Under the pieces are notes generated by a model. The model searched no databases, was not told the DNA's origin, and saw nothing but the letters and a program-made list of their open reading frames with translations. A DNA stretch of 64,000 bases from Sclerotinia nivalis (lineage: Eukaryota > Ascomycota > Leotiomycetes > Helotiales > Sclerotiniaceae). The DNA lies in assembly GCA_029531795.1 (NCBI GenBank), contig JAPEIS010000003.1, forward strand, positions 2,666,001-2,730,000, read 5' to 3'. A program made the position numbers and the translations under genes. Shown one piece after another: positions 5,336-63,000 of the stretch. Each line of letters begins with the position of its first letter. Position 1 is the first letter of the stretch.

Positions 5336-5992
5336 TCACCATTGCTCCCTATTTCCACTCTCCTCATATTTCCGGCAAAGCCGCTCAATATCTCGCTTCA
5401 ACACTTCCTTCGACTCCTCCACCCTATTCCCCACAGTCCGCACGGTCTCTCTACACATCTCACCCCAAACACCCGGAAAATGCAACTTCATCGCCCTCAA
5501 AGCTCTTTGCTCCGCCTCGGCCCGCTTTAATAACATCTCCACCTCAGTCTTAAGTTCCCCCTCTAGCCCTCTACACGCTAAACATCTTTTTGGCATATCT
5601 GCCACCTTCACACACTTCGGGGCACTTGTCACCTCACATGGTCGTATCAAATGTCCACATTCCGTATACACCATTTTTCTTCGACATTGCGGACAATTTT
5701 GATGTGGAGAATCTGTTTCTAGCCACCGCAAAATACATGTAGAGCCGAAGACATGTGAACAAGGAAGCATAAATGCGATTTCGACTTCTCCATCGCAACG
5801 AGAGGAACCAATATCTTCATTACATATTGTACAGCGTTGAGGAGAACTATCTGCCGGATCTGAACTAGAAGCTCTCGATGAGGATAGGGTTGATTGCGAT
5901 TTTGTTGAGAACATCTTGGTAAACGGAACACCCATGAAGAGAAAGATGCGCGAGGAAGACAATGATAGGAAATGAATAAACATAGATTTCAT
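5336..5992 (-). CDS. RING-finger-like zinc protein (probable E3-type), atypical ligand set
   Basis: A 218-residue intronless frame starting at ATG 5992-5990. Residues 1-50 are Ser-rich with a short hydrophobic start. A RING-like finger occupies residues 54-103: C54-x2-C57, then C78-S-H80, C86 and C100-P-Q-C103. At the position where a RING-H2 finger normally has a second Cys/His after H80 there is glycine (H80-V-F-G83), and C86 follows. A second cluster (C113, C122, C130, C141, C144) and a basic, probably helical C terminus follow. RING proteins usually act as ubiquitin ligases, but whether this variant binds two zincs is uncertain. An in-frame TTG upstream at 6007 was not chosen. The gene is convergent with the membrane-protein gene. 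It is recognised only to superfamily. Confidence 0.65.
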   Translation of the reverse strand: MKSMFIHFLSLSSSRIFLFMGVPFTKMFSTKSQSTLSSSRASSSDPADSSPQRCTICNEDIGSSRCDGEVEIAFMLPCSHVFGSTCILRWLETDSPHQNCPQCRRKMVYTECGHLIRPCEVTSAPKCVKVADMPKRCLACRGLEGELKTEVEMLLKRAEAEQRALRAMKLHFPGVWGEMCRETVRTVGNRVEESKEVLKRDIERLCRKYEESGNREQW

Positions 5993-6498
5993 CTTCCCAC
6001 TCGACAAAACAAAAATTACTCATACATTTAATACATATACATATAGAACAAATCTACAATAGATCATTCGTCCACAAAGATTTTAAAATAGCCTTTCACA
6101 CGAAAAACACAGTCATACTTACGGCGCAGGAGGCGATGTTTGCACATATACCCTTTATTTAGTACATTTAGTACCTAGCTACATAATATAATAATGCAAT
6201 CTGACTTCAACCAAAAAAAAATTGGTATGATGACCTTATACCAGCTGAGTTATTCAGTATGCGGATGACGAAGCGAATGATGCAAATGATGGGTTTTGAT
6301 TTATGAACCATGCAGTGTAGTGTAGTACAGTGGTTTGAGAGGAATAGAGGTGGATGTATAAATGTGTTACGCGATGGAGATAGATTGTGAGGATGGTTCA
6401 CCAGTTGGGTGGGTGGACAAAATGAGGGGATGAGAGGGTGTGGGGTTTCACGTGCATGGGTTTTGAGACGTGGATCATGCGCTCTTGGGATGGGGATT

Positions 6499-6540
6499 AG
6501 GTAGGTAGGTAGGTAGGAGGTAGGTAGGTAGGTAGGTAGA
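6499..6540. repeat. (GTAG)n microsatellite
   Basis: About ten GTAG units with one GAG interruption. Confidence 0.8.
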
Positions 6541-6581
6541 TAGTTTTTTATAAGAGTCATAAGAGTCTTGATAGATTTAGG

Positions 6582-6613
6582 GATGAAGATGAAGATGAAG
6601 ATGAAGATGAAGA
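6582..6613. repeat. (GATGAA)n microsatellite
   Basis: Five tandem GATGAA units followed by a degenerate one. Confidence 0.8.
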
Positions 6614-6979
6614 CGAAGGTGTAGGAGTATATCATTCCGAAATCTATATATCGATTCAATTTATTTATCAATTCAAATTTCCTTTTCTTTCTTTTCGTCT
6701 TTTTTATAAGATTATCATAAGATTATATATATATATAATTAGTTATTTAATTCATTGATTAGAAGATATTTAGAATATTTCTCTTGCTTTTTTTCTTCTT
6801 TTGTTTGATAGATGAGATAATAGATGATGGATGATATTTGATATACAAAGGGCTTATATGATTTGAGCCCTTGTTTGTTGTATGGGGATGGGGATGAGGA
6901 TGGGGATGGTTGCTAGGTATTAGGTGTTATGTATTAGATTAGCTATCTATATTTTTTATAAATTTAAGATGAGATGAGA

Positions 6980-7192
6980 TATCACGGAGGCAGCAGACAG
7001 GATAACAGAAATCACTTTTATTGATAAGACGTAGCTCGAAGAGCTACGTTTCTATAGAAGGAACGGTTCCTTAAACACATTTATGTGTAGCGCTAGCCCC
7101 GACCGGGGCTAGCCTACACTTATCCGAGGTCCGACTCCTACGGGTCGGAACCCGAGCGGTCTCCGTATACCATATACGGGGACCCCGTGACA
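6980..7192 (-). mobile_element. 213-bp hairpin element, copy 1 (left inversion breakpoint)
   Basis: One of four 213-bp copies. Its ends are TATCACGG and CCGTGACA. Inside are consecutive perfect or near-perfect hairpins with stems ACGTAGCTC, AAGGAAC, ACACAT, GCTAGCCCC (extended by GTGTAG with one bulge), CCGAC and GGTCTCCGTATA. On the minus strand it begins TG and has AATAAA near its 3' end, as in a solo LTR. The left flank ends TGAGA, while the right flank starts ATACT in LINE sequence. These do not match each other but match the flanks of copy 4 as reverse complements, so this copy sits at an inversion breakpoint. It appears identical in sequence to copy 2. Confidence 0.85.
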
Positions 7193-8453
7193 ATACTGGA
7201 AGCCTTGAACTAGGGGAAATCAGAAGGTATTACTTTTGATCCGAAGAAATCTGAATTAATCCATTTTTTCAAAAGTCCCAAAAGAAATATTGAAAGCCCT
7301 AATATTCATATAGAGAGTCTTTTCATTATAGAAAAACCAGAATCATTAAAATAGTTAGGGGTTTACTTCGATAAAGAGCTTAATTTCAAACCTTATGTTC
7401 AAATACTGTTGGTTAAAGCTTTCACAATTGCAAATGCTTTATATTCACTTGGAAAGATTATTCGAGGTATCCTTTTAATCCTGTTTCAATGAGTAACAAC
7501 AATTTGTATTCTCAAAAAGTGCTATTTTACAATCGAAACTTGATAACTTGATCGAATCAGAAAATGCAGTTTATACTTTACAATATCGAATCAAGTAGAA
7601 GGATATTTGAAACTTTTAAACAAGATTGTATTGATTAATACTCGAACAATCCTTTCACTGGCAGTATTCTATACAATCAATATTGCAATTTTGTTTAAAG
7701 AATCAAATCTAATACCTTTTGAGATTGAATTCAATTTGATCTTATAAAGCTTTGCTGTTCGAATTGTTTGGTTTGATCTTAATCATCCTTTTCGAATTCG
7801 AATCAAAAATATCCTAGCTAAAGGAACTAGGATTATTAAATCAAAATTCTCAAAATCAATTCTAGCTCTTCCAAAAACAGAATATATCAATCCAATTATT
7901 TTCTTTTTTTGAAGAATCAAAGAATCATATATTATTATAGAAATCTGGATTAATAATCCTTTTAATCGTTCAAAAGTATAAGCAACCAAAAACTTTGTAA
8001 GATTCCTATTTATAATCCCAATAAGCAATTTGCAGGTTTTTTTTGATAATTCGAAAAGTAAAGCTTTGAATGGTTTTATAGAAGGTAGTTCAATGATTTA
8101 TCAATACAATCTACAAATAGATCGATAGGTTTTCTTATTTGGTTGTAATACAAAAATCTTCGATGTTGAAGCAATTGTAGTTTTAAAAGATATACAAGTT
8201 GCAATATTATTATTTTCAAATAGATTCGTTACAAATCTTTGGATCTTTTTGGATAATCTAGAAATCGTTATACAATTGTACTCTCATTCGATAAAATCCT
8301 CGCAAATTATATTCAAAGATTTCTGTATTTTAACTACCATTTGATCTTTTAGACCTCGTTTGTTACATATCCATCCTAATTCAATTCGAATTCGATAAAT
8401 CCTTAATCACTTAGATATCCCTAAAAACGAAATAGTAGATATAATAATCAAAA
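7193..8453 (+). pseudogene. RIP-degraded LINE ORF2 fragment, RT to RNase H part
   Basis: This aligns along its length with the intact LINE at 59655-64000, starting at the position equal to 61826 and running toward the LINE 3' end. Differences are mostly C-to-T and G-to-A, and every frame is broken by stops. The matching protein stretch runs from just after the YADD motif of reverse transcriptase through RNase H. It is part of one insertion whose other part now lies at 19168-19346 in the opposite orientation. Copy 2 of the 213-bp element interrupts it at 8454. Confidence 0.85.
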
Positions 8454-8666
8454 TGTCACGGGGTCCCCGTATATGGTATACGGAGACCGCTCGGGTTCCG
8501 ACCCGTAGGAGTCGGACCTCGGATAAGTGTAGGCTAGCCCCGGTCGGGGCTAGCGCTACACATAAATGTGTTTAAGGAACCGTTCCTTCTATAGAAACGT
8601 AGCTCTTCGAGCTACGTCTTATCAATAAAAGTGATTTCTGTTATCCTGTCTGCTGCCTCCGTGATA
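8454..8666 (+). mobile_element. 213-bp hairpin element, copy 2, nested in LINE relic
   Basis: Begins TGTCACGG, ends CCGTGATA, and is flanked by the direct repeat CAAAA (8449-8453 and 8667-8671). Removing the element and one CAAAA restores base-for-base alignment with the intact LINE (minus strand near 60575). The duplicated bases already contain RIP-type changes relative to the intact LINE, so this copy inserted after the LINE was mutated. AATAAA lies near its 3' end. Confidence 0.9.
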
Positions 8667-9596
8667 CAAAAAAAAAACAATACTTCTCTTTTTACCCAAT
8701 TCTATTTGCACTTTTACCTTTTTAAAAAGAATTACTAAAACGAATATTAAATCAATAAAAGCTAAATTATAAATGATTATAATATTATTAAACTACAATA
8801 ATCTTTTTATAATCTATTATAACAAATCAATTATACTTTCTTTTAATCAAACGATATTAGAATATATCCTAACAGCCAAATCTCAATATAACGATTTCGT
8901 AATATATTATAACTGTTTCAATCACGAAAATGCTTATATACTATACTCATATAGAAAAAGAAAATCCCCTCTTTATTTTTACTTTTATAAAATTGAAAAC
9001 ATTCAAAAGACTCTTTCAAAATTACTATCATCTAAAGCTATCCTTTATCTCTTGGGAAATATAAAAGAAACAACGAAACTAACAACTTGATTCAAATCTA
9101 CAAAATTCTATCAGGATATATATTCTCGATTCTTTGTACAACTTATAAATTAAAGAATTACTTTGATTTTTATTTTTATTTTATTTTATTTTTGAATTCT
9201 TTTTGTATAAAGTGTTAGGTTTTGATTCGGAAAAATTGAACTTATATAAACTCTAAAAAAAAAAAAAAAAAAAAAAAGGAAAAAAACTTTATATTAACAA
9301 AATATACTAAAAAAGCTCGATTGCGATAACAAAGAAAAAAGGATCAGGAATCAAAAAATTTAATTGTATTATAAAGGACAACTGAAATATTTACCCAAAG
9401 GATTAACTCAATATATAACAATAATTATATAAACCCTATTGAAGCATTTAGCATATATAATATTAGTAAACTTAGATTAGCTAATTAGAAATCTAGGGGC
9501 CTTTCTTCCCTGATGTTCTTTGTTCCAATTGGGAATTTGAGGTTTGTGCTTCGCACAGAGCCTCGGACAAAAAATATCACACACACACACACACCT
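8667..9596 (+). pseudogene. RIP-degraded LINE, ORF2 C terminus and 3' UTR
   Basis: Continues the LINE after the nested element. A 105-codon frame at 8773-9090 still resembles the end of the intact ORF2 (for example RKRKSPLYFYFYKI), but the C and G positions of the zinc-knuckle-like motif are changed to Y. The 3' UTR follows: an internal A tract at 9257-9279, a conserved hairpin around 9541-9566 and a terminal (CA)n. It then meets the 15-base target duplication CTCCCCTTCTTGAAT at 9597-9611. Confidence 0.88.
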
Positions 9597-9611
9597 CTCC
9601 CCTTCTTGAAT
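9597..9611. repeat. LINE target-site duplication, right half
   Basis: CTCCCCTTCTTGAAT directly follows the (CA)n end of the LINE. Its exact reverse complement is at 19340-19354 beside the truncated 5' end of the same LINE. Together they mark target-primed insertion that was later split by inversion. Confidence 0.85.
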
Positions 9612-9623
9612 AATCAATCGTTT

Positions 9624-9775
9624 TTCATTAATCTTTTTATATATCTATTATATACAATCCAAAACAATTATTAATTCTATTAGTTATACTACTTGAAGCC
9701 TCTACAATATAATCTATTCAGTTCGTATTCCTATTCCCCCTCGCAATGTGCAATCGGGACGCATATATCTCGACC
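9624..9775 (+). repeat. Diverged dispersed repeat, copy A
   Basis: Similar to 51317-51488, best over the last 60 bases, where both read CTCGACCTACCTCTTTCACA after a shared GGACGCA block. It carries no coding capacity and no clear ends. It directly follows the LINE target duplication. Nature unknown; it may be a relic of another transposon. Confidence 0.6.
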
Positions 9776-9969
9776 TACCTCTTTCACAATAGCTAGATAG
9801 AAGAGAAATACTCCCAGGAGTCCGAATACAGGCGGAATAGACCATTATCTTCAATTTTAAATAGAGGAAGCTGATTTCAGTACCATTAAGGAAACCGAAA
9901 TACTTATTTTTTGAAACTACGAATGAGAGTAAAATAGACCAATATAGTAATTACTCTAATGCTGGAATG

Positions 9970-10182
9970 TATCATAGAGGTAATAGACAGGATAATAGGA
10001 ATCACTTTTATTAATAAGACGTAGCTCGAAGAGCTACGTTTCTATAGAAGGAACGGTTCCTTAAATACATTTATGTGTAGCGCTAGCCCCGACCGGGGCT
10101 AGCCTACACTTATCCGAGGTCCGACTCCTATGGGTCGGAACCCGAGCGGTCTCCGTATACCATATGCGGGGACCCCGTGACA
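9970..10182 (-). mobile_element. 213-bp hairpin element, copy 3 (diverged)
   Basis: Flanked by the perfect 5-base duplication GAATG (9965-9969 and 10183-10187), which fixes the element ends. It is the same length as the other copies but differs from copy 1 at about 11 positions, nine of them C-to-T or G-to-A, concentrated in the first 50 bases. The long hairpin stems are almost untouched. Confidence 0.88.
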
Positions 10183-10806
10183 GAATGGATAATTAAAGAC
10201 TATAAAACACAGGGGGTAAGATATTTAAGCGAGATAATAATCATTATATACAAAGGCGATATATTAGAATACAAAAAGATATATATTTATTCATGTAAAT
10301 CATTTCAAACTTTGCTTTTACGAATATTGTAAAGAAATTTCAATTAGAGGGATGACATAAAAGGTGGAGGGTGATGTAAAGAAAAAAGAATGAGGAAATA
10401 GCTACGGGAAGCGACCCAGCAGTTCTCAGAATACTGCTCTTCGTTTGTTTCAAAGCATGATCATCTGGACTAGTACTCACATTCAGCTAACGAGTGTATT
10501 AATTCCTTCCAATATTCAACTAAAACTCATACAACAACCCATCAAATTACGACGAAACTAACTGTTAATGTGCACGACTTGAACTCTTATGCCTTCTCCG
10601 TTACTGTTGAAACTACAGCCGCAGACTCATTGACTCAGTGTCATACAGTGCATTTATTCACCATCTGTGCTATTATATAAGAATTGAGCTGATTTGGTGT
10701 GTAATTTCGAGTGGATATATAAGCGACAATTGGATTTCGTGCATATGAGCAAGGAGGAAGATTGGTGATTTCGTGAATATTAGGAGCAAGATTTGTTGCG
10801 TATGTG
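10183..10806. other. Short intergenic stretch before the copia element
   Basis: AT-rich, with no coding frame, RNA gene or repeat recognised apart from the GAATG duplication at its left end. Confidence 0.55.
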
Positions 10807-10811
10807 ATTTA

Positions 10812-11341
10812 TGTGAGAATTCCTAATAAGTTATTAAAACACTTAATAATATTTACCGAACCAATAGTTATATGATCACGTGATATATTAATAATATGAT
10901 TTCATATTATTAAATTTTATTATTATATAAAATTTCGATCATATATCATATCAGAATGATTTATAATGGAATAGAATGAAATGGAAGCATATAGAATTTT
11001 CTTATTCTCAGATTGAATACTATTGGTTATTATTTCCTTTTATTATATAAAATGATTCTATAAGATTCGATTTAAATCGATCTTATTTATAATCATAGAA
11101 TAGTGTAGAATCTCATTAAAATCTATAAATACGAAGATCTTCTTCAAAGAATTCTTCGAAAAAATAAGCAGATAAAAAATTCAATATTCAATATATATAT
11201 AATTCTGACTTCAATATTCTATTGTTCATATATTCGATCACTCCTAAGCTAAATACGACTAAGTCTTCCACTATTATAATAAATAATATTATAGTATTAT
11301 TATTATATTATTTATTATTATCCGATCAACCTCCTACGAGA
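10812..11341 (+). repeat. Copia 5' LTR
   Basis: Starts TGTGAGAATTCC and ends CCTACGAGA. It contains a TATAAATA box at 11124-11131 and a perfect ATCACGTGAT palindrome at 10875-10884. Its ends are fixed by comparison with the 3' LTR and by the ATTTA duplication. Confidence 0.93.
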
Positions 11342-11353
11342 GGTTATGAGCCC
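11342..11353 (+). promoter_or_regulatory. Primer-binding site, half initiator-tRNA type
   Basis: GGTTATGAGCCC directly follows the LTR. It is complementary to the anticodon arm of initiator Met tRNA (CAT anticodon), not to its 3' end. Drosophila copia and several fungal copia elements prime from such a cleaved tRNA half. The match is by recognition; the host tRNA is not in this window. Confidence 0.75.
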
Positions 11354-11827
11354 GGCTAGTCAAATACTAGCTTAAAAAGGGGTACTAGCTCGATTCAAAG
11401 CTATAATATTATAGCTATTGAGCTGTCGAATATCACTATATCGATATAATATCAATATCATATTGAATTATTATCGAAATATACTAAAATAAACCCTGAG
11501 GCCTGCGTCCCTGAAGCTAAACCTAATTGAGTGAATAAAATTAGGTCCCTAGACGATATATTTAAGCTATACGCTACCCATAGCGGGTGATATATCAATT
11601 TCTTCATACCAAGGTGCCCTAGCTTATTTAGGCTTTATTTTATAAAGTTTAAAATAAAGATCTAATTTAAGAGGTGGCTGGTTTATTATACCGAAATCGA
11701 TCTAATTTCGATATTAAATCGAATCACTATCGAATTCCATTCAAATTTTAATACTAAATTCATCAAAATTAGTATTAATACTATACTAGATTAAAAGTCC
11801 ATATAGCTTACATATAAAAGCTTAAAA

Positions 11828-14800
11828 ATGGCTTCTGGTATAACTTTTAAAGGAGAACCCTTAAAAGGGAGGTCTAATTATATTGAATGGATAAATAAGG
11901 CTAAATTATACCTCGAAATTAATGGTTTTATGCCTTATATCGATGGATCCGAAACGCCTCCAAATAAATCATTATATGTAAATGATAAAGGAGAGCCTTA
12001 TACCCCAGAATTGGCTATTAAATTCAATGAATAAGCTTCCGAATATCTTCGAAATGAAAAGAGAGCTTTAGGAGCTATTAAATCTATAATTAGCTTCGAA
12101 TTAGTCGAAAGATTTAAGGATAAAACTACGGCTAAAACTCTCTGGGAAGCTATTAATAAAATATTCGGAGAATCTTCACTAGAACTAATGGGGAGATATC
12201 TGAATAAACTAATAGAATCCAATTATAATAGTTCTGATGATATGGATGATTATACTAATTCTATTCAATCATCGTATAACTATTTAAAATCAATGAAATA
12301 CGAAATTCCGAAGGCTTTTATAGCATGGTTTCTTTTTAGAGGCCTACCTAGTTCTTTCGATGGTTTTGCCTCTAGAAAATACGAAGAATTAGCTAAGGAG
12401 CTAGCTAATAATGACAACAATATTGATTTAGATAATTTATTTTCTGAATTAATATCTGAAGAGGCTAGAATGAAATCTAATACAGATTTCAATGCAAATA
12501 AGGCTAGCTTTAAAAATAAGAATAAAACTCCTTATTGTAGTCATTGCCGAAAGAAGGGTCATTTAGAATCAAAATGCTTCATTAAATACCCTGAATTAAA
12601 GAATAATAAGGGTGCTAATAATAAGCAATCTAATTCTAATTCAAATTCGAATTCGAATAATGATTCGAGCAAAAAGAACCCTCTTTCAAACAAACAGTTA
12701 ATGACTGTGAATCATAATATCGGAATAGCTAATTTAGCTAATATTTCGAAATATAAATTCATATTAGATTCCGGTGCCACAGAACATTATTGCCCTAATA
12801 AAGAATGGTTTATTAATTATAAACCATTAAAGAATCATTGTATCACTGTAGCTAGTGGTGAAAACGTCTCAATCGAAGGAATAGGCGATATTCCTATTAT
12901 TATTAATAATAATTCAGAGGTGATTATTCAAGGGGTATATTATATACCCAAATTAGCTACAACCTTAATTAGTACGAATAAAATAGCTACTAGAGGTTGG
13001 GCTAGTCATATTATCCCTCCTGGAGACAAAATCAACCTAGTTCATAAAGGGTATAATATTAAAACCACAGCTCCTTGGATCAATAATGCTTATTATTTAG
13101 ATTTTAAAATAAACTCTAAATATATCGAAAGCATTAATACCAATAACAGCTCTGAATTCGAAGAAGAACCAGAGCTATTAGCCAATAAAATCGATTTGAA
13201 TCTAATGCATAAGAGATTAGGTCATATCAATAAGGATCATCTCATCAAATCCTTAAATATTAAATCAGAAGATAATATATCTGATTTAAATACATGCGAA
13301 CCATGTAAATTCGGCAAATTCCATCAAATAATAAGCCGAGAACCTTCTGAAATACCTCCTATATCGAATAAATTCGAAAAATTCAGCCTTGATATTGCAG
13401 GGCCCTTTCGAATTACAGGAATTAAAGGTGAAAAATACTTTTTAACCTTTACGGAATGGGCTACTAGAGCTATTTGGGTATATCCCATTAAATTCAAATC
13501 ACAAGCCTACGATATTCTAATAGAGTTTTATAATCTAATTAAAACTCAGTTTAAAATTAACATTAAAATATTAAGACTAGATAATGCTCTAGAGTTTTTA
13601 TCGAATAAATGGTCTATTTTCATCAAAAATCACGGGATTATTTCAGAGTATATAAGCCCGTATACGCATTCCCAAAATGGAATAGCTGAGGTATTAAATA
13701 GATATATAATCGAAAGATTATTATGTCTAATTAAAGAAAAAGATATTCCTCTTTTTCTATGGCCTTATCTAATTCAGGCTATAGCCCATATCAAGAATAG
13801 AACCTATAATAGTTCTATTAAATCATCACCTTTCGAATTGATATATAATAAGAAACCTAATCTAGATTACATAAAAATACTAGGTTCACTCACTTATATA
13901 TTGAATAACAAAGAAATTCGAAAAGGGAAAATGGATTTTAGGGCTCGAAAAGGTATATTAGTAGGTTTTGAATCCTCTAATAACTTTCTAATATATATCC
14001 CTGCAATAAAAAGAGTGATTAGTGCAAGGGATGTTGATATTCAGGAGAATTTAAAATATTCCGATGAATATAAAAATCAGGATTTAAATATTTTGGAAGA
14101 AGAAAGCCCTGATTTCGAACCTATTAATACTATAAGTCAAGAAGAAGAAAATTCAACTTCAATTATAGTAGAAACCCCTACTCCTGAAAGGGAAATAGTC
14201 GAAATATCCGACGAATCAGAGCTTTCGGATGTTGAAATCAAAGAAAACTCTTTCGAAAAACCCGAAATTCGAACCTCTAAACGAATTAGAGGTCTAGAAC
14301 CTGAAAATAAAGGCTTTTCATATGATCATAAAGGTGTGTCATACTATGGTCTAGCTTTTTCGGGGTATTTTAATTCGATCAATAAGGGTGTGAATCTCGA
14401 AATCGACGACGAAAATTCGAAAAACCTTCAATTAGCCTTCGATATTCGGCTTAATAATAACAACAAAATCATTATTAAAAAGCCTGATCATATATTGACC
14501 GAACCAAAATCCTATAAAGAAGCAATTAGCTCACCGGAGAAAGAATATTGGCTAAAAGCTATGGACTACGAAATAAATACCCTTGAATTGAATAAAACCT
14601 GGGATATTATTAATAATCCAAATAACAATAAAACCCTTAAAACTAGATGGGTTTATAAAATAAAGGATTTGGGTGATTTCATCGAATTCAAAGCTAGATT
14701 CGTAGCTAAAGGATTCGAGCAATTATACGGATTAGACTATATTGATACCCATGCATCCGTAGTTAAATCGATGGCTTGGAAGCTATTATTCGTATTAGCT

Positions 14801-16018
14801 CTCCAAAATGATTGGCTAATTCATAAAATCGATATGGTATTAGCTTTTGCTCAAGGCAATATCGATACACCTCTGATCTTAACCCCTCCTGAAGGCTTTA
14901 ATGAATTAAATAATAAAGCTTTAAAATTAAATAAGGCTTTATACGGTCTAAAACAATCGGCTCGAATCTGGTATTATACCTTAAAAGACATTCTAAACAA
15001 ATTAGATTTCAATAATCTAATCACTGAAGAATGTATTTTTATCAATAAGAATAAGAATATCATTCTCAGTATATACGTCGATGATATAGCTATTATAGCT
15101 CCAAATCAAGAGATTATTAATGAATTCATTAGTAATCTTAAAAAGCATTTCGATTTAAAAGATCTAGGGCCTATTAAAGACTATTTAGGCATTCAAATCG
15201 AAAGAAAAGCCGACTGTTTAAAGCTACACCAATCAGAACACACCAAAAAGATATTAGCTAGATTCGGAATGCTAGATTCACACCCTGTTTCCACTCCAAT
15301 GGATCCGAAAATAAAGCTTTACTATAATAAAGAAAAAGCTAATAATAAGGATATAAAATTATATCAAGAAATTATTGGTTCTTTATTATATTTATCACTT
15401 GGAACTAGATTAGATATAGCTTTTCACGTCGGTAGATTAGCTAGTTTCTCGTCCAATCCTAGCTCTATACATCTCCAAGCCGCAAAAAGAATACTACGAT
15501 ATTTAAGAGGTACTATTAATAAAGGTACTAATTATAAACGCAATAATAACCCTTATATTAAAGGTTATTGTGATTCGGATTATGGGGGTGATGTTAATAC
15601 GTATAAATCAACTAGCGGATACGTATTTACACTAGCAGAAGGGCCTATTAGTTGGAAATCTAAACTACAATCAGTAGTAGCTCAATCAACTTCAGAGGCT
15701 GAATTTATAGCTATTAATATTGCAGCTAAAGAGGCTATATATATTAAAAAGCTATTAAAAGAACTCAATCTGTATAAACAAGATAAATTCCCACTATATA
15801 CAGATAATCAAGCCGCGCTAGCACTTGCTAAAAACCCTATATTTCACGAAAGAAGCAAGCATATAGCAATACGGTTTTACTATATTAGAGATATTATAAA
15901 TTCAGGTGATTTAGATCTAATTTATATATCTACTAATGATCAAAAAGCCGATGGCCTTACTAAGCCATTAGCTCGAATTAAATTAATCGAATTCTTAAAA
16001 CAGATTAATTTATATTAA
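11828..16018 (+). pseudogene. Copia Gag-Pol polyprotein with one in-frame stop
   Basis: One frame of 1397 codons, interrupted only by TAA at 12032-12034 (codon 69). The frame resumes unchanged, and an ATG at 12188 opens 1276 residues. CAA-to-TAA by one C-to-T change would explain the stop. Counting from 12188: CCHC knuckle CSHCRKKGHLESKC near 117; protease DSGA near 193; integrase zinc region with LMHKRLGHI near 339 and CEPC; integrase core acidic residues at DIAGPF, RLDNALEF and NGIAEVLNR; reverse transcriptase with YVDD near 963; RNase H with YCDSDYGGD near 1126 and ending before 1270. The order protease, integrase, RT, RNase H is diagnostic of copia. A programmed readthrough stop is unlikely so early in gag. 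Confidence 0.93.
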
Positions 16019-16055
16019 TATTATTAAAATATTTAATACACTTATTATGGGGGTG

Positions 16056-16585
16056 TGTGAGAATTCCTAATAAGTTATTAAAACACTTAATAATATTTAC
16101 CGAACCAATAGTTATATGATCACGTGATATATTAATAATATGATTTCATATTATTAAATTTTATTATTATATAAAATTTCGATCATATATCATATCAGAA
16201 TGATTTATAATGGAATAGAATGAAATGGAAGCATATAGAATTTTCTTATTCTCAGATTGAATACTATTGGTTATTATTTCCTTTTATTATATAAAATGAT
16301 TCTATAAGATTCGATTTAAATCGATCTTATTTATAATCATAGAATAGTGTAGAATCTCATTAAAATCTATAAATACGAAGATCTTCTTCAAAGAATTCTT
16401 CGAAAAAATAAGCAGATAAAAAATTCAATATTCAATATATATATAATTCTGACTTCAATATTCTATTGTTCATATATTCGATCACTCCTAAGCTAAATAC
16501 GACTAAGTCTTCCACTATTATAATAAATAATATTATAGTATTATTATTATATTATTTATTATTATCCGATCAACCTCCTACGAGA
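16056..16585 (+). repeat. Copia 3' LTR
   Basis: 530 bases, matching the 5' LTR throughout by eye. It is preceded by GGGGGTG and followed by the ATTTA duplication. Confidence 0.93.
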
Positions 16586-16945
16586 ATTTATAGTGTACAC
16601 GTAAGGTTGAGTATTCGGAGGGTATTTTGATGATTAAGAGGGATTAGTTTGGTGGTGGGCCATTTAGTATTGATACTTATAAATAATAGGAGTGACGGTA
16701 TAGAAGATACTGAAATAATCAGTTGCTGTAAGCTGCATTGCATAAAGTGAGAGAGTACAAAAATATGATAGGACTAGACGGACTAGATACTAAATTGCTG
16801 GCAACGGGCAAGAATGAAAATGAGCCACTTGCAAACTCAGCCCACTCAACCTACTCTGTGATCTAAACAACCCACACAGAATTCAAGAACAGCCAGCACC
16901 CAACACGCACTCTCCAATCTCGATTTCCTCGCAAATAAAAACAAC

Positions 16946-17533
16946 TCACCCCTCTTCCATTTCACTCATCACCTCAATCTCATTCCCCTCCATAACAGCC
17001 TCCATAACAGCCTCCATAACAGCCTCCATAACAGCCTCCATAACAGCCTCCATAACAGCCTCCATAACAGCCTCAAAATTCCTCTTCTGATATCGCTTAG
17101 CAAGCTTAGCAAAATACCTTCTCAACTCCGCATATATCACTTTTGAGTTTTTCAAACAGGTTAGGTCGACATATTCATGTTCTCGAAATTTTAGATTGAG
17201 GGTATATAGATTTAAGTCTGAGTTGTAGCTGAAAGATACCAGAATACTAAAAGGATACGTGGAAATTTTGAGAGAGGATGATTTGGTGTTGTTGTTTTTT
17301 TGAATAGATGGAAAATTAAAGGATGAAGGACGAAGGGTAAAGTTTTGAGTGGGGGTAGTGGAATTTTTATTCGGATCGGGATGGAAGGGGAATTTTGGCT
17401 TTGCGCTCGGGTTGGTTTTCGTTTTAGAAATAGAGGGAAAATATTTTCTTATGTAGAGGAAAAGAAATCCGAGTATTAATGTAAATAGTAAATAGTAGAT
17501 TGAATACTTGTATCCTACTGCATCCCTAATCCT
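16946..17533 (-). CDS. Orphan coding exon or relic with TM segment and VMEA repeat
   Basis: A 195-codon open frame without any ATG before its repeat region, limited upstream by TAG at 17536-17534. Read from its upstream end it gives a hydrophobic helix (YYLLFTLILGFLFLYI) followed by Arg-Lys, a Pro/Ser/Thr/Lys-rich stretch, a mixed region, a 7-unit VMEA repeat and an acidic tail. Such a long open frame in AT-rich DNA, with membrane-protein architecture, suggests a real exon. The upstream GGATAG could serve as an acceptor, and a candidate donor GTGAGT lies about 180 bases further upstream (near 17717). The segment lies inside the inverted block. I do not recognise the protein. It may be a later exon of a spliced gene or a gene cut by rearrangement. 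Confidence 0.4.
   Translation of the reverse strand, partial: RIRDAVGYKYSIYYLLFTLILGFLFLYIRKYFPSISKTKTNPSAKPKFPFHPDPNKNSTTPTQNFTLRPSSFNFPSIQKNNNTKSSSLKISTYPFSILVSFSYNSDLNLYTLNLKFREHEYVDLTCLKNSKVIYAELRRYFAKLAKRYQKRNFEAVMEAVMEAVMEAVMEAVMEAVMEAVMEGNEIEVMSEMEEG
16991..17074. repeat. 12-bp minisatellite, seven units
   Basis: Seven perfect CATAACAGCCTC units. On the minus strand they encode tandem Val-Met-Glu-Ala in the frame described above. Perfect identity suggests recent expansion. Confidence 0.9.
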
Positions 17534-18954
17534 CTATCCTTATAAACACATCCAGCGAGCGGGATTGATGAATCTACATTTGAAAGTCAACAAATCTTTT
17601 TCCCCCCTAACAGCGCAAGCGAGAAATCAGGGGTAAAGCCATCAACAAGAAGAATTTTCACTCTTATATCAAAGTTTTGAAATTATGATTATGCAAAGCA
17701 AAGGCAAACTCACCAATAAGGCCTTCTCACTATCATCCCAGCAATGAGAAGTCTGCGCAAAAACTAGGCATTCAGGCGGTAGATTTGCAATGGCTTGGCG
17801 TTATATAGTTACAATATTGAGGTCTAGTTCAATGGCCTGAAGATGAAGCGTGTAAGCGAGGTATAGCTTATGATGTATATCAAAGTCTCGATAATTTGCG
17901 GTCTGGAGGGTTTGTATGTGGAATTTTGAAGTTTATTCGAAAATATTTATTTGTCTGTATTATTGCTGAGGTTCGATGTTAGACTTACTAATTCGGCGTA
18001 TTTGAGTCATGTAAGTATCTATCAACTCGAACATTTAAGTAGTTTTCCTCACCGACACCAATTTGAAGACTTCAATTTACATGCTTGAAATGCCTCGCAA
18101 CTATTGCATATTGGTAATATATGAAATAAATGATTCAATAATTTCCCTCAACCAACCATTAAACCTTTTAAGTCAACATTAAAAATGATGAACAAACCAA
18201 CAAGAAGCCATTATCTCTCCCTCACCCTACCCATTTCAATCTACATTCCATCTCTTGATGAGAAGTTCCCTGAACTGTTCTTTTACATCATACACTTCCC
18301 TCAAGCTACGTCCTCGCACTGAATTTCGCGATGGATTGTGAGTAGCGGGTATATTCATTTTCCCCCTTATTATCGAACGTGAAATTTTGCTTCTCAATTG
18401 GATGGTGAATGAGGTTGTGGCGAACTGATTGTGAAAGTAAAGTCCAGAATAGAGATTTACCAGACATGTATGAATAAAAATGATGTGGCTTTAGAAATAG
18501 CGAAAGGAGACTGCAAGGTTTTGCGGCGATGACCCCAAGAATGAGGATGAGGTATTAAGCATTTTTCCGTATGTAGATTTTAGATATAAAGAGAAAGCTA
18601 GAAAATAAAATAGATAATTTTATGAGAAAAAAGAATCACTAAAGAATACGTAAGAAAAATCATTAAATTATATTACACGATCTTAATAAAATAAACACAC
18701 CAATAATAACGATAACGAGCAAGAAGCCACAGAGCTCTATAGACGATGTCAGTAAGGAAAGCATCCGAATCACCCGGTAAATATTCAAATTCAAGTATTT
18801 GAAGATGTGTACTACCTACTACTTATATGATGACTACATCGTACTACCTATTATGCTCAACTCATTATTCTATAGATCAGGGAATCTTGACTAGTCATTA
18901 GGTACTTAGGTATCAGCTACCACCCATTACCCAGATAATCAATCATCCCTCTCA
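17534..18954. other. Intergenic region up to the right inversion breakpoint
   Basis: No gene is recognised, apart from a possible upstream exon of the VMEA frame around 17718-17795 on the minus strand. Its last five bases, TCTCA, are the reverse complement of the TGAGA that precedes copy 1 of the 213-bp element. Confidence 0.5.
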
Positions 18955-19167
18955 TGTCACGGGGTCCCCGTATATGGTATACGGAGACCGCTCGGGTTCC
19001 GACCCGTAGGAGTCGGACCTCGGATAAGTGTAGGCTAGCCCCGGTCGGGGCTAGCGCTACACATAAATGTGTTTAAGGAACCGTTCCTTTTATAGAAACG
19101 TAGCTCTTCGAGCTACGTCTTATCAATAAAAGTGATTTCTGTTATCCTGTCTGCTGCCTCCGTGATA
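18955..19167 (+). mobile_element. 213-bp hairpin element, copy 4 (right inversion breakpoint)
   Basis: Begins TGTCACGG and ends CCGTGATA. It differs from copy 2 by a single C-to-T. The left flank TCTCA and right flank AGTAT do not match each other but pair with the flanks of copy 1. The right flank is LINE sequence starting at the same LINE position (equal to 61822) where the copy 1 flank stops. Confidence 0.9.
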
Positions 19168-19346
19168 AGTATTTCCGATTGTAGTTGATCACAATTCGAT
19201 TATAAGCTTGAAAAGAATGCTATTAAAGCAATATCATCTGTATATCCAAATCTTCGGATGGGATTGCCTAACCAAAACAAAGGGGCTATATAAAGCATAA
19301 AAAGAATAGACGAAATTGGAGAGCCTTGTGGTAAGCCACATTCAAG
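19168..19346 (-). pseudogene. RIP-degraded LINE, truncated 5' end (RT segment)
   Basis: Similar to 61822-61996 of the intact LINE, covering the reverse transcriptase around the YADD motif. It is the missing 5' portion of the LINE at 7193-9596, in the opposite orientation. The AGTAT overlap at the element insertion site is shared by both parts. It ends abruptly at the 15-base target duplication (19340-19354), as expected for 5'-truncated target-primed insertion. Confidence 0.85.
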
Positions 19347-19354
19347 AAGGGGAG
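19340..19354. repeat. LINE target-site duplication, left half (reverse complement)
   Basis: ATTCAAGAAGGGGAG is the exact reverse complement of 9597-9611. It overlaps the LINE end by a few bases of microhomology. Confidence 0.85.
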
Positions 19355-24457: not shown

Positions 24458-25692
24458 ATGCGGTTTAAGACTTCCGTCCGGAATATTCAGACTTTCAGCA
24501 GTAAGTGTTATTTCTTTGGTTCTCTAGAAAGATGGTCTCACAACTTACAAAATTACAGAACTGACAGCTTCATTGTCATCACTTGGCAAAGTAGCTTGGG
24601 TACGCCTGGACGACAATGGAGTACGATTCACAATTATTCCTGAGACAGGAACTCAAGTATGGGCGTGAGTAATGCATTCATTACAGTTTGAACTGAAATG
24701 CTAATCCAGGAAAGGTCTCTCTCAATTGACTCTATATTTGAAGACTACACAATTCAATCCGCCGCTCCAGATAATACGATCAACATAGAACTACCCCTCC
24801 CACCCCTCCATCGCGCTTTAAAATCCGCAATAAACGCGTCATCTGCTTCAATACGACTCACTAAACGAGATGGAATGCCAGTACTATCTCTCACAGTTAT
24901 TACAAATACTATGATGCATGGAAAAAGCGCAAACTTTCTTGGTGGTGAAGGTGAAGCAGCAGATCCATTTAACGAAGGGTTCCGCGAAGAAAGTCTTGAT
25001 GCGAATATAAGAAGAGATAGAGAGGCTATCGTTACTCAGGATATTCCCATACGTATTTTGACGGCAGATAGTGTGGAAGGAATACACGAGCCAAGGGTTA
25101 GAGATCCGGATGCGCATATTATGCTGCCTTCTCTGATACAGTTGAAAGCTATCTCCGAACGTTTCACGAAGCTCGCAATGGCCACGGCATCTGGTGGAAC
25201 GAGAGGAGTCAGTGGAGGAAATATACCGAAGTTGGAGTTGAGCGCAAATATGCATGGTAGTTTGAGATTGAGTATTGCTACGGATGCATTGAATATCTCA
25301 AGTGTATGGACAGGTCTCAATAATCCGGAATTGGACCCAAGGCAAATGGAGGATGGAGAAGATGAAATTGAAAACCATCCAACAACGAGACTTAAAGCTG
25401 CTGGTCCGGATGCTTGGTCAACTGTTAGAATAGACGGAAGAGATTGGGGAAAAGTACTTAGTGTTGGGAGACTTGGTGGAAGAGTAATTGCTTGTGAGTA
25501 TTTCACGTTCTGAGGTTGATGATTCATACTGATAATTTTAGGTTTCGTCAATGATCATGCGTTGATATTATATGTATACCTTGACAACTATGATGAAGGC
25601 GACGAGTCTGTTCTAACGGTATGACCCATAATATTTATCAGCATTCACATTCTAACGTTCTCTAGTACTACATTTCTTCGTTCAGTGCATAA
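24458..25692 (+). CDS. hus1: DNA-damage checkpoint clamp subunit Hus1
   Basis: Hus1 forms the ring-shaped 9-1-1 clamp with Rad9 and Rad1, loaded at damaged DNA to activate the ATR/Mec1 kinase. Five exons fit: 24458-24500, 24559-24664, 24715-25493, 25542-25618 and 25666-25692, giving 343 residues. Recognisable family features are the start MRFKTSVRNIQTF, the strand K-V-A-W-V-R-L-D-D-N-G-V-R-F, the IDSIFEDYTIQS segment, the N-I-E-L-P-L-P-P-L-H-R-A-L stretch, and the end with VNDHALILYVYLDNYDE and YYISSFSA. The third exon needs the acceptor GAAAG, because the nearer CCAG would shift frame. If the last intron is retained, the protein ends eight residues earlier at TGA. Confidence 0.85.
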
Positions 25693-57922: not shown

Positions 57923-59167
57923 TCTCAAGGAGAAATATCTTTGTAAATGAAAGTTTGAATATTATTTCAACGAATGAGTAGATATAATTCAAAAGCCGAA
58001 TAGAAAATTGATGAATGAAGGACTGAGTACTGTAGGACTCTGGTTGATAATGAAAAAAGTAAATATGTCGAGGAGATGATTGTGTACTTATACACAGCAA
58101 ACAACAATAAAAAGCAATCATTTACTTAAGTCTAGAGCAACTTCCTCCAAACCTGGATGAATAGTTTAAAGGTACTAAGGTCGACTTCTCCGAAGAAAGT
58201 GTCGGTTAGACCGGCGGTTCCTGAATGTGCACGTTTTGCCTTGTACCATTGCAATTTTTACCACATGCCGAAAAGTACGTTGATTTGGAAGAGAAAAGAA
58301 CCTAAACTACCTCGAGGTTAGTGGTCGTGTTAGTCGATTGTTGTGTTCTGCCATTCGCCATAGAAGGTCCATTTCCGAAGCTGTTGTTATAGTGGTTGTA
58401 AATTATGGCGCCGTCGCTGAGCTGGCATGAGCACCTCCGGTTGCTGATGTTCATGGAGGTTTCAAACTAAAAGTGGCCTCTGAGCTAAGGACACCATTCA
58501 TAAACTATGCTGCAATCAACGGCAAACATCAAATTCCCTCTTTATATTTCCATTTTGAACTCCAGCTACACGAATAAACTATGTAGCTTAAAAGAAGTTG
58601 TCGATTGAGCTGGAGATTTCTTTTTTCTAGTTCGAGGTCAGATAGCCATGAGACCGAGAAGAACATTTTTTGACCGTGATGTGCATACTTTTAATACAAA
58701 TACTTTACATGCCATTACTACTTCCTCAAGGTAATTACCGGGATAGCTAAGACGGTACCGACTCATGGTAGTGTCCCAATTATAACCGTGCACCAAGTCC
58801 TTAGATTGATTTTTGGCTAGGTGCGGAGGTGCTATGAAATAGCTATTTATCTGGGGCGTGAATAGAAGCCGTTTCACTTATTGTTCTTATGTGCAGCTAC
58901 ATTGCGCTTAAAATTGAATAGAATCTCTATTTGCGAACGCCCCTCGTTTGTTTCGGAGTCCGGCAACAAATTCTACATATCTAAGATGCAGGATCTATAT
59001 CGCAGAACCTAATATTCTGTCCGTCATATCTTAGATCAGATGGAAAGCGTACTAGCCGAAGTGTTATCCAATCGGTTGATAACTCCCCTTTTATTTCCAA
59101 GCATCTAATTTGGACCACCTGGCTAGTAATGTTGATGCATCTGGGAAAGTATCGGACGAACCCCTCG
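57923..59167. other. Promoter region of the GLEYA gene and intergenic DNA
   Basis: The first 200 bases are the AT-rich leader and promoter of the minus-strand GLEYA gene. Nothing else is recognised. Confidence 0.5.
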
Positions 59168-59581: not shown

Positions 59582-59684
59582 GGAGTTTATCATTTTTTTT
59601 GGTGCTGATTCTGAGTCAGATGGACTGTCTAGGATAATGTTGAGCCAGTTTTCATGTGTGTGTGTGTGATATTTTTCGTCCGAG

Positions 59685-59710
59685 GCTCTGTGCGAAGCAC
59701 AGGCCTCAAA
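59685..59710 (-). other. Conserved 3'-terminal hairpin of the LINE
   Basis: On the minus strand GAGGC-CTGTGC, loop TTC, GCACAG-A-GCCTC forms an 11-pair stem with one bulge, about 20 bases from the (CA)n end. In the RIP-mutated copy (near 9540-9566) the changed bases still pair as G-U. LINE reverse transcriptases often recognise such a 3' stem-loop. Confidence 0.65.
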
Positions 59711-60086
59711 TTCCCAATTGGGACAAAGGACGCCAGGGGAGGAAGGCCCCTGGGTTTCTAACTAGCTAATCTAAATTTACTAGTATTATATATGCTAAAT
59801 GCTTCAGCAGGGTTTACATGATTGCCGTTGCGTATTGAGTTAATCCCTTGGGTAGATATTTCAGCTGTCCTCCACAATACAGTTAGATCCCTCGATTCCT
59901 GATCTCCTCTCCTTCGTCATCGCAATCAAGCTTTTTAATATGGTTTTGTTAATATAAAGATTTTTTTTTTTTTTTTTAAAGTTTATACAAACTCAATCTT
60001 TCCGAACCAAAACCCAACGTCTTATACAAAGAAAATCCAAAAAAATAACATAAAATAAAAATAAAAATAAAAATCAAAACAATCCT

Positions 60087-63000
60087 TCAATCAATAAATT
60101 GTATAGGGAATCGAGGACATATATCCTGATAGAACCTTGTAGATTTGAGCCAAACTGCTAGTTTCGCTGTTCCTTCCATACTTCCCAAAAGATAGGGGAT
60201 GGCTTCAGATGGTAGTAACTTTGAAAGGGTTTTTTGAGCATTTCCAATTTTACAAAAGTAAAAATGAAGAGGGGATTTTCTTTTCCCACATGAGCATAGC
60301 ATATAAGCATCTTCGTGATTGAAGCGATCGTGATACGCTGCGAAATCGCCGTGTTGAGATCTGGCTGCTAGGATATATCCTAGTATCGTTCGATCAAAAG
60401 AAAGCATAATCGATTTGTTATTGTAAATTATAAAAAGATCATTATAGCTTAATGGTGCTGTGATTGTCCATAACTTTGATCTTGCTAATTTAGCATTCGA
60501 TTTAGCGATCCTTTTCAAAGAGGCAAAAGTGCAAATAGGATCAGGTGGGGATGGGAGTGCTGCTCCCTCTTTAGCTGCTTTGTCCGCTGCTTCATTTCCG
60601 GGGATATTTAGATGCCCAGGAACCCATCGGATTCGAATTGAACCAGGGCGGGTATGTGGCAAGCGGGGCCTGAGAGGCCAAGCTGTAGCTAGTTCGCAGA
60701 ATTCTTCAAATACAGATTGAGAGGATCCAGTGGAATGAGAGCCTAATCGTATAGCAACCTCTAGGTTATCCAAGAAAACCCAGAGGTCTGTAGCGAACCT
60801 AGCTGAGGGTAGCTGTATTGCTGCTTGAGCACCTTTCAAAGCTGCAGCTGCTTCGGTATCGAAGACTTCAGCATTACAGCCTAGTGAGAAAGCCTGTCGA
60901 TCCACTTGCAGATTGTATTGATAAATCACTGATCCACCTCCTGTAGCACCATCCAGAGCTTCGCTTTTCGAACCATCGGAGAAGACTTGCAAATCACTTT
61001 TTGGAATCGTAGATATAAACCTTTCGAAATCCTTAGCTGCTCGTTCCTTCGAACGACCGAGAGGGCCACCGATCCGGGTTTCTGTGATAATACGCGGTTC
61101 TTTGTTCCTCCAAGGGGGAAGAGCAATTGGATTGATATATTCAGCTTTTGGAAGAGCTAGGATAATTCTTGAAAACCTTGATTCGGCAGTTCTGATACCA
61201 GCTTTAGCTAGGATGTTTTTGGTTCGGATTCGGAGGGGGTGTTTAGGGTCAAGCCGAGCTGTTCGGGCCGCGAAACTTTGGGATATCAGATTGAGCTCTA
61301 TTTCAGGGGGCATCAGATTTGATTCCTTGTATAAGGCAGCAGTGTTAGTTGTACGGAATACGGGGAGGATTGCTCGAGCGCTAATTAGCACAATCTTATT
61401 CAAAAGCTTCAAATGTCCATCCACTTGATTCGAGATTGTGAGGTTTAGGCCTCGTTTCCTAGTTCGGCTAGGCCACCAGGTTTCAGCTGCAAAGTAGCAT
61501 TTCTTCAGAACACAGGCTGTAATCGCTCTTTGAAGCAAAATTGATGGGATGCCTCGGGTTGTCCTTCCAAGCGAACGCACTGCATTCGCAATTGTGAGAG
61601 CCTTAGTTGAAAGGACCTGGACATGAGGTTTGAAACTCAGTTCCCTATCGAAGTAAACCCCCAACCATCTCAATGGGCCTGGTTTCTCCATTATTGAAAG
61701 ATTTTCTGTATGAATAATAGGGCTTTCGATACCTTTCCTGGAGCCTCTGAAGAAGTGAATCAGTTCAGACTTCTTAGGGTCGAAAGTGATTCCTTCAGAT
61801 TTGCCCCAATTCAGAGCCTCCAGCATTTCAGATCGTAATTGATCACAATTAGATTGTAAACTTGAAGAAAAAGCTACTAATGCAATATCGTCTGCATATC
61901 CAAATCTTCGAATAGGATTGCCTAACCAAAACAAAGGAGCTATATAAAGCATGAAAAGGATAGGCGAAATTGGAGAGCCTTGTGGCAAACCACATCCAAT
62001 ACTAGTACTGGGCCCTGTTTCGCCATCAAGCCGAATACGAATTGATCGATTTGTAGAGAACGATTGAATCCATCGAACTAGATTATCAGGCCATCCTTGT
62101 TCTCTGAGTCGACGAACTAAGCGTCCTGGGAGAACAGCATCAAAAGCACCTTTGATATCCATAGTTAATAAAGTAGCTTTAGAACCTGAATTCAAAGCCA
62201 TTTCCACATCATGTGTAAGGCAAGTTGTGAGATCGACTGATGAACGCAGGGGAAGTGCTCCGAATTGTTGCTTGGCTAGTACTTTGAGGGTTATAGCAAT
62301 CCAGGACATCTTCTTTGCAATCAAACGTTCGAGACCTTTTCCTAATACTGAGAGCAGGGCTATTGGTCTATAAGATCTAGGACTTGTGCGATCTGATTTG
62401 TTCGGTTTCGGAACGATGGCTACAATCGCTGATCGGAAGCATTTAGGATGGTGACCTATTTCGAGGCATTTTTGAAAGAGTTGTAAGATATATGGTTCGA
62501 TCAGTGGCCATGCTAACTGTAGGATCTTGGTAGGGATCTCGTCTATTCCTGGAGCTGTATTACCCGTACGAAGGATAGCAGTTTGAATATCCTGAATTGT
62601 GATAGCAGGAAAGGCAATTGAACGAATGGAAGTTGAAGGCGAATCAAATGGGATATCGTTAACTTCAGCTGTATTGGTTAGCAGATTATTGATGAGTAGA
62701 TCTCTTTTAGTTTGAATTGTTGTAGCAAGAGAATGATCTAAAGGATCTACTAAAGGAGGAGTTCGATATGTTCCAGCTGATTGATGCCATTTTGTCATTT
62801 TAAAGACATCTTTTATTTCCTTGACTGAATCAAGCTTAGAGAGCCAGAATTCCTTTTTCGCTTTTTTGACAACCTTTCGAAGATTTTGTTTTGATTCTGA
62901 AGAGTTGTTCGTTCGGTTTTCTTGAACAGCTGTCCGGCAGGTCTCGTTCCACCATGGTTGACCTGTATTTCGGCCGAGTGATCTTTGAGCTGATCCTGTG

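What the first reader, a model, noticed from the sequence alone, without database searches (positions are those of the whole stretch)
6980..19167. 11.8-kb inversion proven by swapped target duplications at two 213-bp elements
Copy 1 (6980-7192) has TGAGA on its left and ATACT on its right. Copy 4 (18955-19167), in the opposite orientation, has TCTCA on its left and AGTAT on its right. Neither copy has a matching pair, but flipping the segment 7193-18954 gives copy 1 flanked by TGAGA/TGAGA and copy 4 by AGTAT/AGTAT. The same flip rejoins the two halves of one LINE exactly at the position equal to 61822-61826 and brings together its 15-base target duplication (9597-9611 and 19340-19354). Three independent marks agree, so recombination between inverted copies of a very short repeat is the simplest explanation.
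Basis: seen in the sequence. Interest (0 to 1): 0.92.

Follow-up and report, generated by a model that had tools for sequence, protein, structure and literature searches.

The report
Small inversion between two retrotransposon ends
In a fungus related to the grey mould Botrytis, an 11.8-kb piece of chromosome has been flipped, most likely by recombination between two facing 213-base retrotransposon remnants; the swapped insertion footprints record it clearly, but the process is a known one.

Summary
The 213-bp repeat is the long terminal repeat (LTR) of a 5.6-kb Ty3/Gypsy-type retrotransposon; the window holds four solo copies. Copies 1 and 4, oppositely oriented and differing at one base, carry reciprocally exchanged 5-bp target duplications. 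Flipping 7193-18954 restores both pairs; none of the three other flips between oppositely oriented copies does. It also rejoins a LINE without a gap (634 vs 634 bp), at a point crossed unbroken by the 40 best-scoring LINE copies of the genome (of 163 candidates), and reunites the LINE's 15-bp duplication. I read 114 complete LTR copies (303 LTR starts are known). 69 of 78 solos have perfect duplications; this is the only reciprocal pair. Of 13 inverted solo pairs within 50 kb, one is swapped. Best explanation: one inversion by ectopic homologous recombination between inverted LTRs, probably already solo. LTRs still joined to internal sequence are RIP-like mutated (median identity 90.1%), solos much less (99.1%), and copies 1 and 4 are nearly pristine. 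Not shown: the old order in a relative, raw reads, or element size at the time. It is a clear example of a known kind of event.

The parts
6980..7192 (-). Copy 1: solo LTR (213 bp) of a Ty3/Gypsy-type retrotransposon, left end of the inversion; flanks TGAGA / ATACT
6975..6979 (+). TGAGA, one half of the original target duplication of copy 1 (other half now at 18950-18954 as TCTCA)
7193..18954 (.). Inverted segment, 11,762 bp
7193..7197 (+). ATACT (AGTAT reversed), one half of the original target duplication of copy 4
7193..9611 (-). Larger part of a truncated, decayed LINE (relative of 59655-61999), moved by the inversion; it holds copy 2; LINE target duplication at 9597-9611
8454..8666 (+). 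Copy 2: solo LTR, identical to copy 1, matching duplication CAAAA/CAAAA; not a partner of this inversion
9970..10182 (-). Copy 3: older solo LTR, 11 differences from copies 1 and 2, matching duplication CATTC/CATTC; not involved
10812..16585 (+). Copia LTR retrotransposon inside the segment: identical 530-bp repeats, ATTTA duplication, open frame 12035-16018
18950..18954 (+). TCTCA, displaced half of the duplication of copy 1
18955..19167 (+). Copy 4: solo LTR at the right end of the inversion, one base different from copy 1; flanks TCTCA / AGTAT
19168..19354 (+). Remaining piece of the same LINE, starting with AGTAT and ending in the 15-bp LINE target duplication (19340-19354)
61366..61999 (+). 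Uninterrupted LINE paralogue used as reference; the junction falls at 61822-61826

Best explanation
Copy 4 (plus) inserted into an old truncated LINE, making an AGTAT duplication; copy 1 (minus) inserted about 12 kb away, making a TGAGA duplication. A crossover between these inverted, nearly identical LTRs, most likely after both had become solo, flipped the 11,762 bp between them. It left both LTRs intact, exchanged one flank of each and split the LINE. Shown: the exchanged duplications, the LINE continuity, the nature of the element, and that this is the only reciprocal pair in the sample. Inferred: that the exchange was homologous recombination in mitosis or meiosis, that the LTRs were already solo, and that it happened once.
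For: Exchanged duplications at both copies. Gap-free LINE rejoining, 481 of 634 identical, at a point that all 40 scored LINE copies, the window's own among them, cross in one alignment (37 over all 634 bases; the best 40 of 163 candidates). LINE 15-bp duplication restored. The 213-bp unit is the LTR of full-length elements: three read, each with an LTR-to-LTR distance of 5425 bp and matching outer 5-bp flanks; frames of one of them match RVT_1, RNase H, SH3_Tf2-1 and Chromo. 69 of 78 solos have a perfect duplication, and copies 1 and 4 are the only reciprocal pair among 114 copies. The sequence on the non-LINE side of each breakpoint (6500-6979 and 17800-18954) has one full match in the assembly, apart from short microsatellite matches of the first. 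RIP: 35 internal-flanked copies of 213 bp carry 636 substitutions, 601 of them C>T or G>A; median identity is 90.1% for 36 internal-flanked copies and 99.1% for 78 solos, Mann-Whitney p = 5.9e-10.
Against: No relative or second strain with the old order could be searched. Raw reads were not seen. The single difference between copies 1 and 4 cannot show chimerism or place the crossover. Seven other solos of the 78 also have discordant flanks, so discordance alone is not rare; for the six less decayed of them no reciprocal partner was found, which leaves their cause open. The solos' fewer substitutions are also mostly C>T or G>A (215 of 288), so solos are not free of that bias and the RIP argument is one of degree. 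The 40 scored LINE copies are the best-matching ones, which favours unbroken copies.
Confidence: 0.85

Rival explanations
1. A variant of the best explanation, its odds lying within that 0.85: the same inversion, but the crossover took place between full-length 5.6-kb retrotransposons (or one full-length and one solo), and each partner was reduced to a solo LTR afterwards.
For: Solos generally arise from full-length copies (recalled), and the exchanged duplications would look the same. Full-length copies exist.
Against: LTRs attached to internal sequence are mostly RIP-like mutated (median 90.1%), while copies 1 and 4 match the commonest LTR at 213/213 and 212/213, so they probably lost the internal part before any RIP. 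An asexual interval without RIP would escape this argument; 5 of the 36 internal-flanked copies are at 99% identity or more.
Confidence: 0.17
2. Assembly error: the segment was placed in the wrong orientation between two near-identical inverted repeats. This gives exactly the same signature as a real inversion.
For: A near-identical inverted repeat is a classic place for such an error; reads were not available.
Against: The assembly has 31 contigs, the largest seen 8.1 Mb, which suggests long reads that would span 213 bp easily (inference; the sequencing method is not known). Of 13 inverted solo pairs within 50 kb, 8 have both duplications intact, 4 include one discordant copy that does not match its partner, and 1 is swapped, so misorientation is not systematic. 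No N in the window.
Confidence: 0.07
3. The segment flips repeatedly and both orientations coexist, as reported for the 3.6-kb MAT segment of Sclerotinia sclerotiorum between 250-bp inverted repeats.
For: Same fungal family, similar repeat length and identity (PMC3574095, passages read). The LTR is rich in hairpins: folding energy -49.5 against a shuffled mean of -24.7, z = -7.45, which might favour breaks.
Against: Only 1 of 13 nearby inverted solo pairs in the sample is in the swapped state (the pairs share copies, so they are not independent); frequent flipping would give about half. Copies 1 and 2, identical, inverted and 1.3 kb apart, are not exchanged with each other.
Confidence: 0.06
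4. Chance or another process (LINE twin priming, hybrid-end transposition, or separate deletions) produced the flanks.
For: Twin priming inverts parts of LINEs (recalled); hybrid-element insertion of DNA transposons can mimic exchanged duplications (PMC2775673, passages).
Against: Chance of the double match is about 1.6e-6 for a given pair. Twin priming would not place the LINE's own target duplication in opposite orientation 9.7 kb away. LTR elements do not use the cut-and-paste route that hybrid insertion needs (recalled).
Confidence: 0.01

Closest known systems
Drosophila buzzatii inversion 2z3 generated by the transposon Galileo (PMC2775673; start of abstract in the listing and passages seen)
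   Same: Two copies of one transposon in opposite orientation at the two breakpoints, with exchanged target duplications; explained by ectopic recombination.
   Different: Galileo is a P-superfamily transposon with 7-bp duplications; both copies were shown to be chimeric; the uninverted chromosome was examined. It is a large population-level inversion (size recalled).
Sclerotinia sclerotiorum MAT inversion, 3.6 kb between identical 250-bp inverted repeats (PMC3574095; start of abstract and passages seen)
   Same: Same fungal family; inversion between identical inverted repeats of nearly the same short length.
   Different: The repeat is a MAT1-1-1 fragment that matched no transposon; it inverts in every meiotic generation; both orientations were observed.
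Ty/LTR-mediated rearrangements in Saccharomyces (PMC3757047 passages; PMC3102749 and PMC9879454 in the search listing only)
   Same: Ty elements and solo LTRs discussed as substrates of non-allelic homologous recombination.
   Different: The passages seen concern meiotic breaks and full-length Ty elements; no exchanged target duplications were seen in them.
Solo LTRs and RIP in S. sclerotiorum (PMC5004834; start of abstract and passages seen)
   Same: 141 and 359 solo LTRs of a Copia and a Gypsy element, RIP-like mutation, a 5-bp target repeat; solos taken as a sign of recombination.
   Different: The word 'inversion' does not occur in that text; exchanged duplications were not searched for as a term.
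Arrowhead and other D. pseudoobscura inversions between 128-bp and 315-bp repeats (as cited in PMC2775673; the original was not seen)
   Same: Inversion by ectopic recombination between very short repeats.
   Different: The nature of those repeats is called obscure there.

Membership tests
Solo LTR of a Ty3/Gypsy chromovirus-type retrotransposon | Same sequence flanks a full-length element as two direct repeats | tested here: met
   Three full-length copies read, LTR-to-LTR distance 5425 bp in each
Solo LTR of a Ty3/Gypsy chromovirus-type retrotransposon | Internal region codes RT, RNase H and chromodomain | tested here: met
   RVT_1, RT_RNaseH, zf-CCHC, SH3_Tf2-1 and Chromo in four stop-to-stop frames of L009 (of five listed); the integrase core itself was not seen in them
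Solo LTR of a Ty3/Gypsy chromovirus-type retrotransposon | 5-bp target duplication at undisturbed solos | tested here: met
   69 of 78 solos
Solo LTR of a Ty3/Gypsy chromovirus-type retrotransposon | TG...CA ends | tested here: not met
   Ends are TG...TA, a variant recalled as known among LTRs and so not held to be defining; the other features carry the assignment
Transposon-mediated inversion by ectopic recombination | Copies in opposite orientation at both breakpoints | tested here: met
Transposon-mediated inversion by ectopic recombination | Exchanged target duplications | tested here: met
Transposon-mediated inversion by ectopic recombination | Both copies chimeric | tested here: inconclusive
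   Only one base differs between copies 1 and 4
Transposon-mediated inversion by ectopic recombination | Uninverted order seen in a relative | not testable with these tools
   The genome has no relatives held here; internal proxy: LINE continuous in 40 of 40 scored copies
Recurrent inversion between short inverted repeats (MAT type) | Both orientations coexist | not testable with these tools
   One assembly only
Recurrent inversion between short inverted repeats (MAT type) | Comparable inverted pairs frequently swapped | tested here: not met
   1 of 13 pairs within 50 kb

The most novel reading that the evidence does not exclude
In a RIP-active fungus, RIP normally protects the genome from ectopic recombination by making long repeats diverge. 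LTRs shorter than the RIP length limit escape once they become solos, stay nearly identical in hundreds of copies, and so become the main remaining substrate for rearrangements; this 11.8-kb inversion would be a fresh example.
Probability: 0.2. Interest if true: 0.55.

Novelty: new member of a known kind. Interest (0 to 1): 0.3.

Why it matters
It is a clean footprint of one recombination event, readable from a single genome without a relative. It suggests a testable idea: in RIP-active fungi, solo LTRs of about 200 bp, too short for RIP, are the repeats that remain identical enough to rearrange chromosomes. The inverted segment is AT-rich and full of transposons. Whether any gene was broken or changed was tested only by a Pfam scan of ten open frames near the breakpoints, so no effect on the organism is claimed.

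Tried and rejected
LINE twin priming: rejected, because the LINE's own 15-bp duplication is split and inverted. Other flips (1-2, 2-3, 3-4): rejected, flanks do not match. Other rearrangements by the same LTR: I looked for reciprocal partners of six other discordant solos (L007, L070, L066, L103, L080, L039; 96.7-100% identity) by 5'-flank patterns over the whole genome, exact in the first 15 LTR bases, so a partner with a mutated start would be missed. One 5' match turned up (C14:1732787, for L080), but its 3' flank is TCATA instead of ATAGG, so it is not a partner. L070's 3' flank looks like a piece of another LTR (read by eye), so nesting or deletion may explain it. L085 (79%) and L021 (82%) were too decayed to use. 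both count 78 solos with nine discordant, but one search counts L021 where one search counts L103; I use. Position 136, the one difference between copies 1 and 4, gave no information on chimerism. Composition and RIP indices along the window did not sharpen the breakpoints. A Pfam scan of ten open frames near the breakpoints found one gene, a RING-finger frame at 5336-6019, about 1 kb outside the left breakpoint and not cut by it; nine frames had no match. Literature: nine of ten searches used. None of the titles and abstract starts shown reports a solo-LTR inversion with exchanged duplications in a filamentous fungus; several lists were capped and most papers were seen only as listings, so this is no proof of absence.

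Limits of the census: 114 distinct complete copies, against 303 LTR starts at up to 2 mismatches and 248 exact 23-mer starts. The sample is not random: it follows list order and lies mostly on contigs C1-C5 (81 of 114). 22 partial BLAST hits, and an uncounted number of copies too near a locus end, were dropped before the count. One copy of 214 bp was left out of the substitution count. The last lines failed with a script error; only its first lines are used.
Full report
WHAT IS THERE. The window is C3:2666001-2730000 of a 50.3-Mb assembly in 31 contigs, the largest seen 8.1 Mb. A Hus1 reading frame in it (24692-25513) is 96% identical to Botrytis paeoniae and 95% to Botrytis cinerea over 95% of its length, so the organism is a Sclerotiniaceae fungus close to or within Botrytis; the species is not known. 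In element orientation, copy 1 has AGTAT before and TCTCA after; copy 4 has TCTCA before and AGTAT after. The two differ at one base of 213.

WHAT THE ELEMENT IS. The genome holds 303 LTR starts at up to 2 mismatches. In pairs 5425 bp apart the LTR bounds full-length elements; in the three that I read (L009-L011) the outer 5-bp flanks match as duplications. Four stop-to-stop frames of one copy match RVT_1, RNase H, zf-CCHC, SH3_Tf2-1 and Chromo; the integrase core was not seen in them. This is a Ty3/Gypsy chromovirus-type retrotransposon. The ends are TG...TA instead of TG...CA. The four window copies are solo LTRs.

THE INVERSION. Of four possible flips between oppositely oriented copies, only the flip between copies 1 and 4 restores matching duplications, and it restores both. 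It also joins the two LINE pieces with no gap and no overlap other than the 5-bp duplication: 634 against 634 columns, 481 identical. The 40 scored genomic copies of this LINE stretch (the best 40 of 163 candidates, one of them the window's own) all run across the junction point in a single alignment, 37 over the full 634 bases; being the best matches, they are biased towards unbroken copies. The LINE's 15-bp duplication is exact in reverse complement. These right-hand marks share one breakpoint, so I count two breakpoints, each with its own evidence, not three independent marks.

HOW UNUSUAL IT IS HERE. Among 114 distinct complete copies, 78 are solos and 36 adjoin internal sequence. 69 of 78 solos have a perfect 5-bp duplication. 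The nine that do not include copies 1 and 4, the only reciprocal pair among all 114. Two solos share a duplication in 3 of 2346 pairs, giving about 1.6e-6 for a double match in a given pair. For six other discordant solos a genome-wide partner search by 5' flank gave none. Of 13 oppositely oriented solo pairs within 50 kb, 8 have both duplications intact, 4 include one discordant copy that does not match its partner, and 1 is swapped; the pairs share copies and are not independent. Thus the assembly does not systematically misorient such segments, and frequent flip-flop is not the rule.

WHEN AND ON WHAT SUBSTRATE. LTRs still attached to internal sequence carry mostly C>T and G>A changes (601 of 636 in 35 copies) and have a median identity of 90.1% (36 copies); solos have 99.1% (78 copies; p = 5.9e-10). 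This fits RIP, which acts on duplications longer than about 400 bp (stated in PMC5004834, passages): full-length copies are hit, solos of 213 bp much less. Copies 1 and 4, at 213/213 and 212/213, therefore probably became solos before any RIP, which makes recombination between 213-bp solos more likely than between 5.6-kb elements, though not certain. Against this: the fewer changes in solos have the same bias (215 of 288), five internal-flanked copies are also at 99% or more, copies were mostly picked by an exact match of their first 23 bases and in list order, and solos and full-length copies may differ in age. The exchange came after both insertions, and copy 4 lies in an already decayed LINE, so the inversion is recent relative to the LINE.

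MECHANISM. Shown: inverted near-identical LTRs, exchanged footprints, both LTRs intact. Inferred: a crossover by ordinary homologous recombination within one chromatid or between sisters. As single-stranded DNA the LTR folds far better than its shuffles (-49.5 vs -24.7, z = -7.45), so hairpins might promote breaks there; this is a suggestion only.

COMPARISON. Exchanged duplications at transposon-bearing inversion breakpoints are a described signature of ectopic recombination (Galileo, PMC2775673, passages). Very short repeats suffice elsewhere: 128-bp and 315-bp repeats in D. pseudoobscura (cited there) and 250-bp repeats in Sclerotinia MAT (PMC3574095, passages), which belongs to the same family as this fungus. 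The finding is a neat new example, not a new kind.

WHAT REMAINS OPEN. No reads and no relative were available, so an assembly error (about 7%) and a still polymorphic state (about 6%) are not excluded. The unlucky case that the partners were full-length at the time is a variant inside the main explanation. A Pfam scan of ten open frames near the breakpoints found one gene, a RING-finger frame at 5336-6019, not cut by the breakpoint; gene models were not made, so a broken gene without a Pfam domain is not excluded.

Noticed in passing
genome-wide, LTR family of 6980-7192: Solo LTRs are near-identical (median 99.1%, 78 copies) while LTRs still joined to internal sequence are RIP-like mutated (median 90.1%, 36 copies), as if solos escape RIP.
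   Followed up: partly
L010:502-730 and 5900-6139: The first bases after the 5' LTR (CTACGTAGCTCC) are complementary over 9 bases to a stretch inside the LTR (GAGCTACGT), which recalls Tf1-type self-priming (recalled); a purine-rich AAGGAGGGGGG precedes the 3' LTR. Read by eye, not tested.
   Followed up: no
10812-16585: Copia retrotransposon with two identical 530-bp LTRs, ATTTA target duplication and a 1327-aa open frame: a recent insertion inside the inverted segment.
   Followed up: partly
59655-63899: LINE copy with a 1270-aa open frame (endonuclease, RT, RNase H matches) on the minus strand; 634 bases of it are 96-100% identical to eleven other genomic copies.
   Followed up: partly
55265-57961: 898-aa open frame (minus strand) with a GLEYA domain and a degenerate 99-bp repeat array at 56391-56771.
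   Followed up: no
18955-19167: The LTR is a chain of strong hairpins, z = -7.45 against shuffles.
   Followed up: partly
L007:1501-1713 (C11:1774618): A solo identical to copy 1 (213/213) with discordant flanks AATAT/CGATT and no reciprocal partner found; possibly one side of an unequal exchange or deletion.
   Followed up: partly
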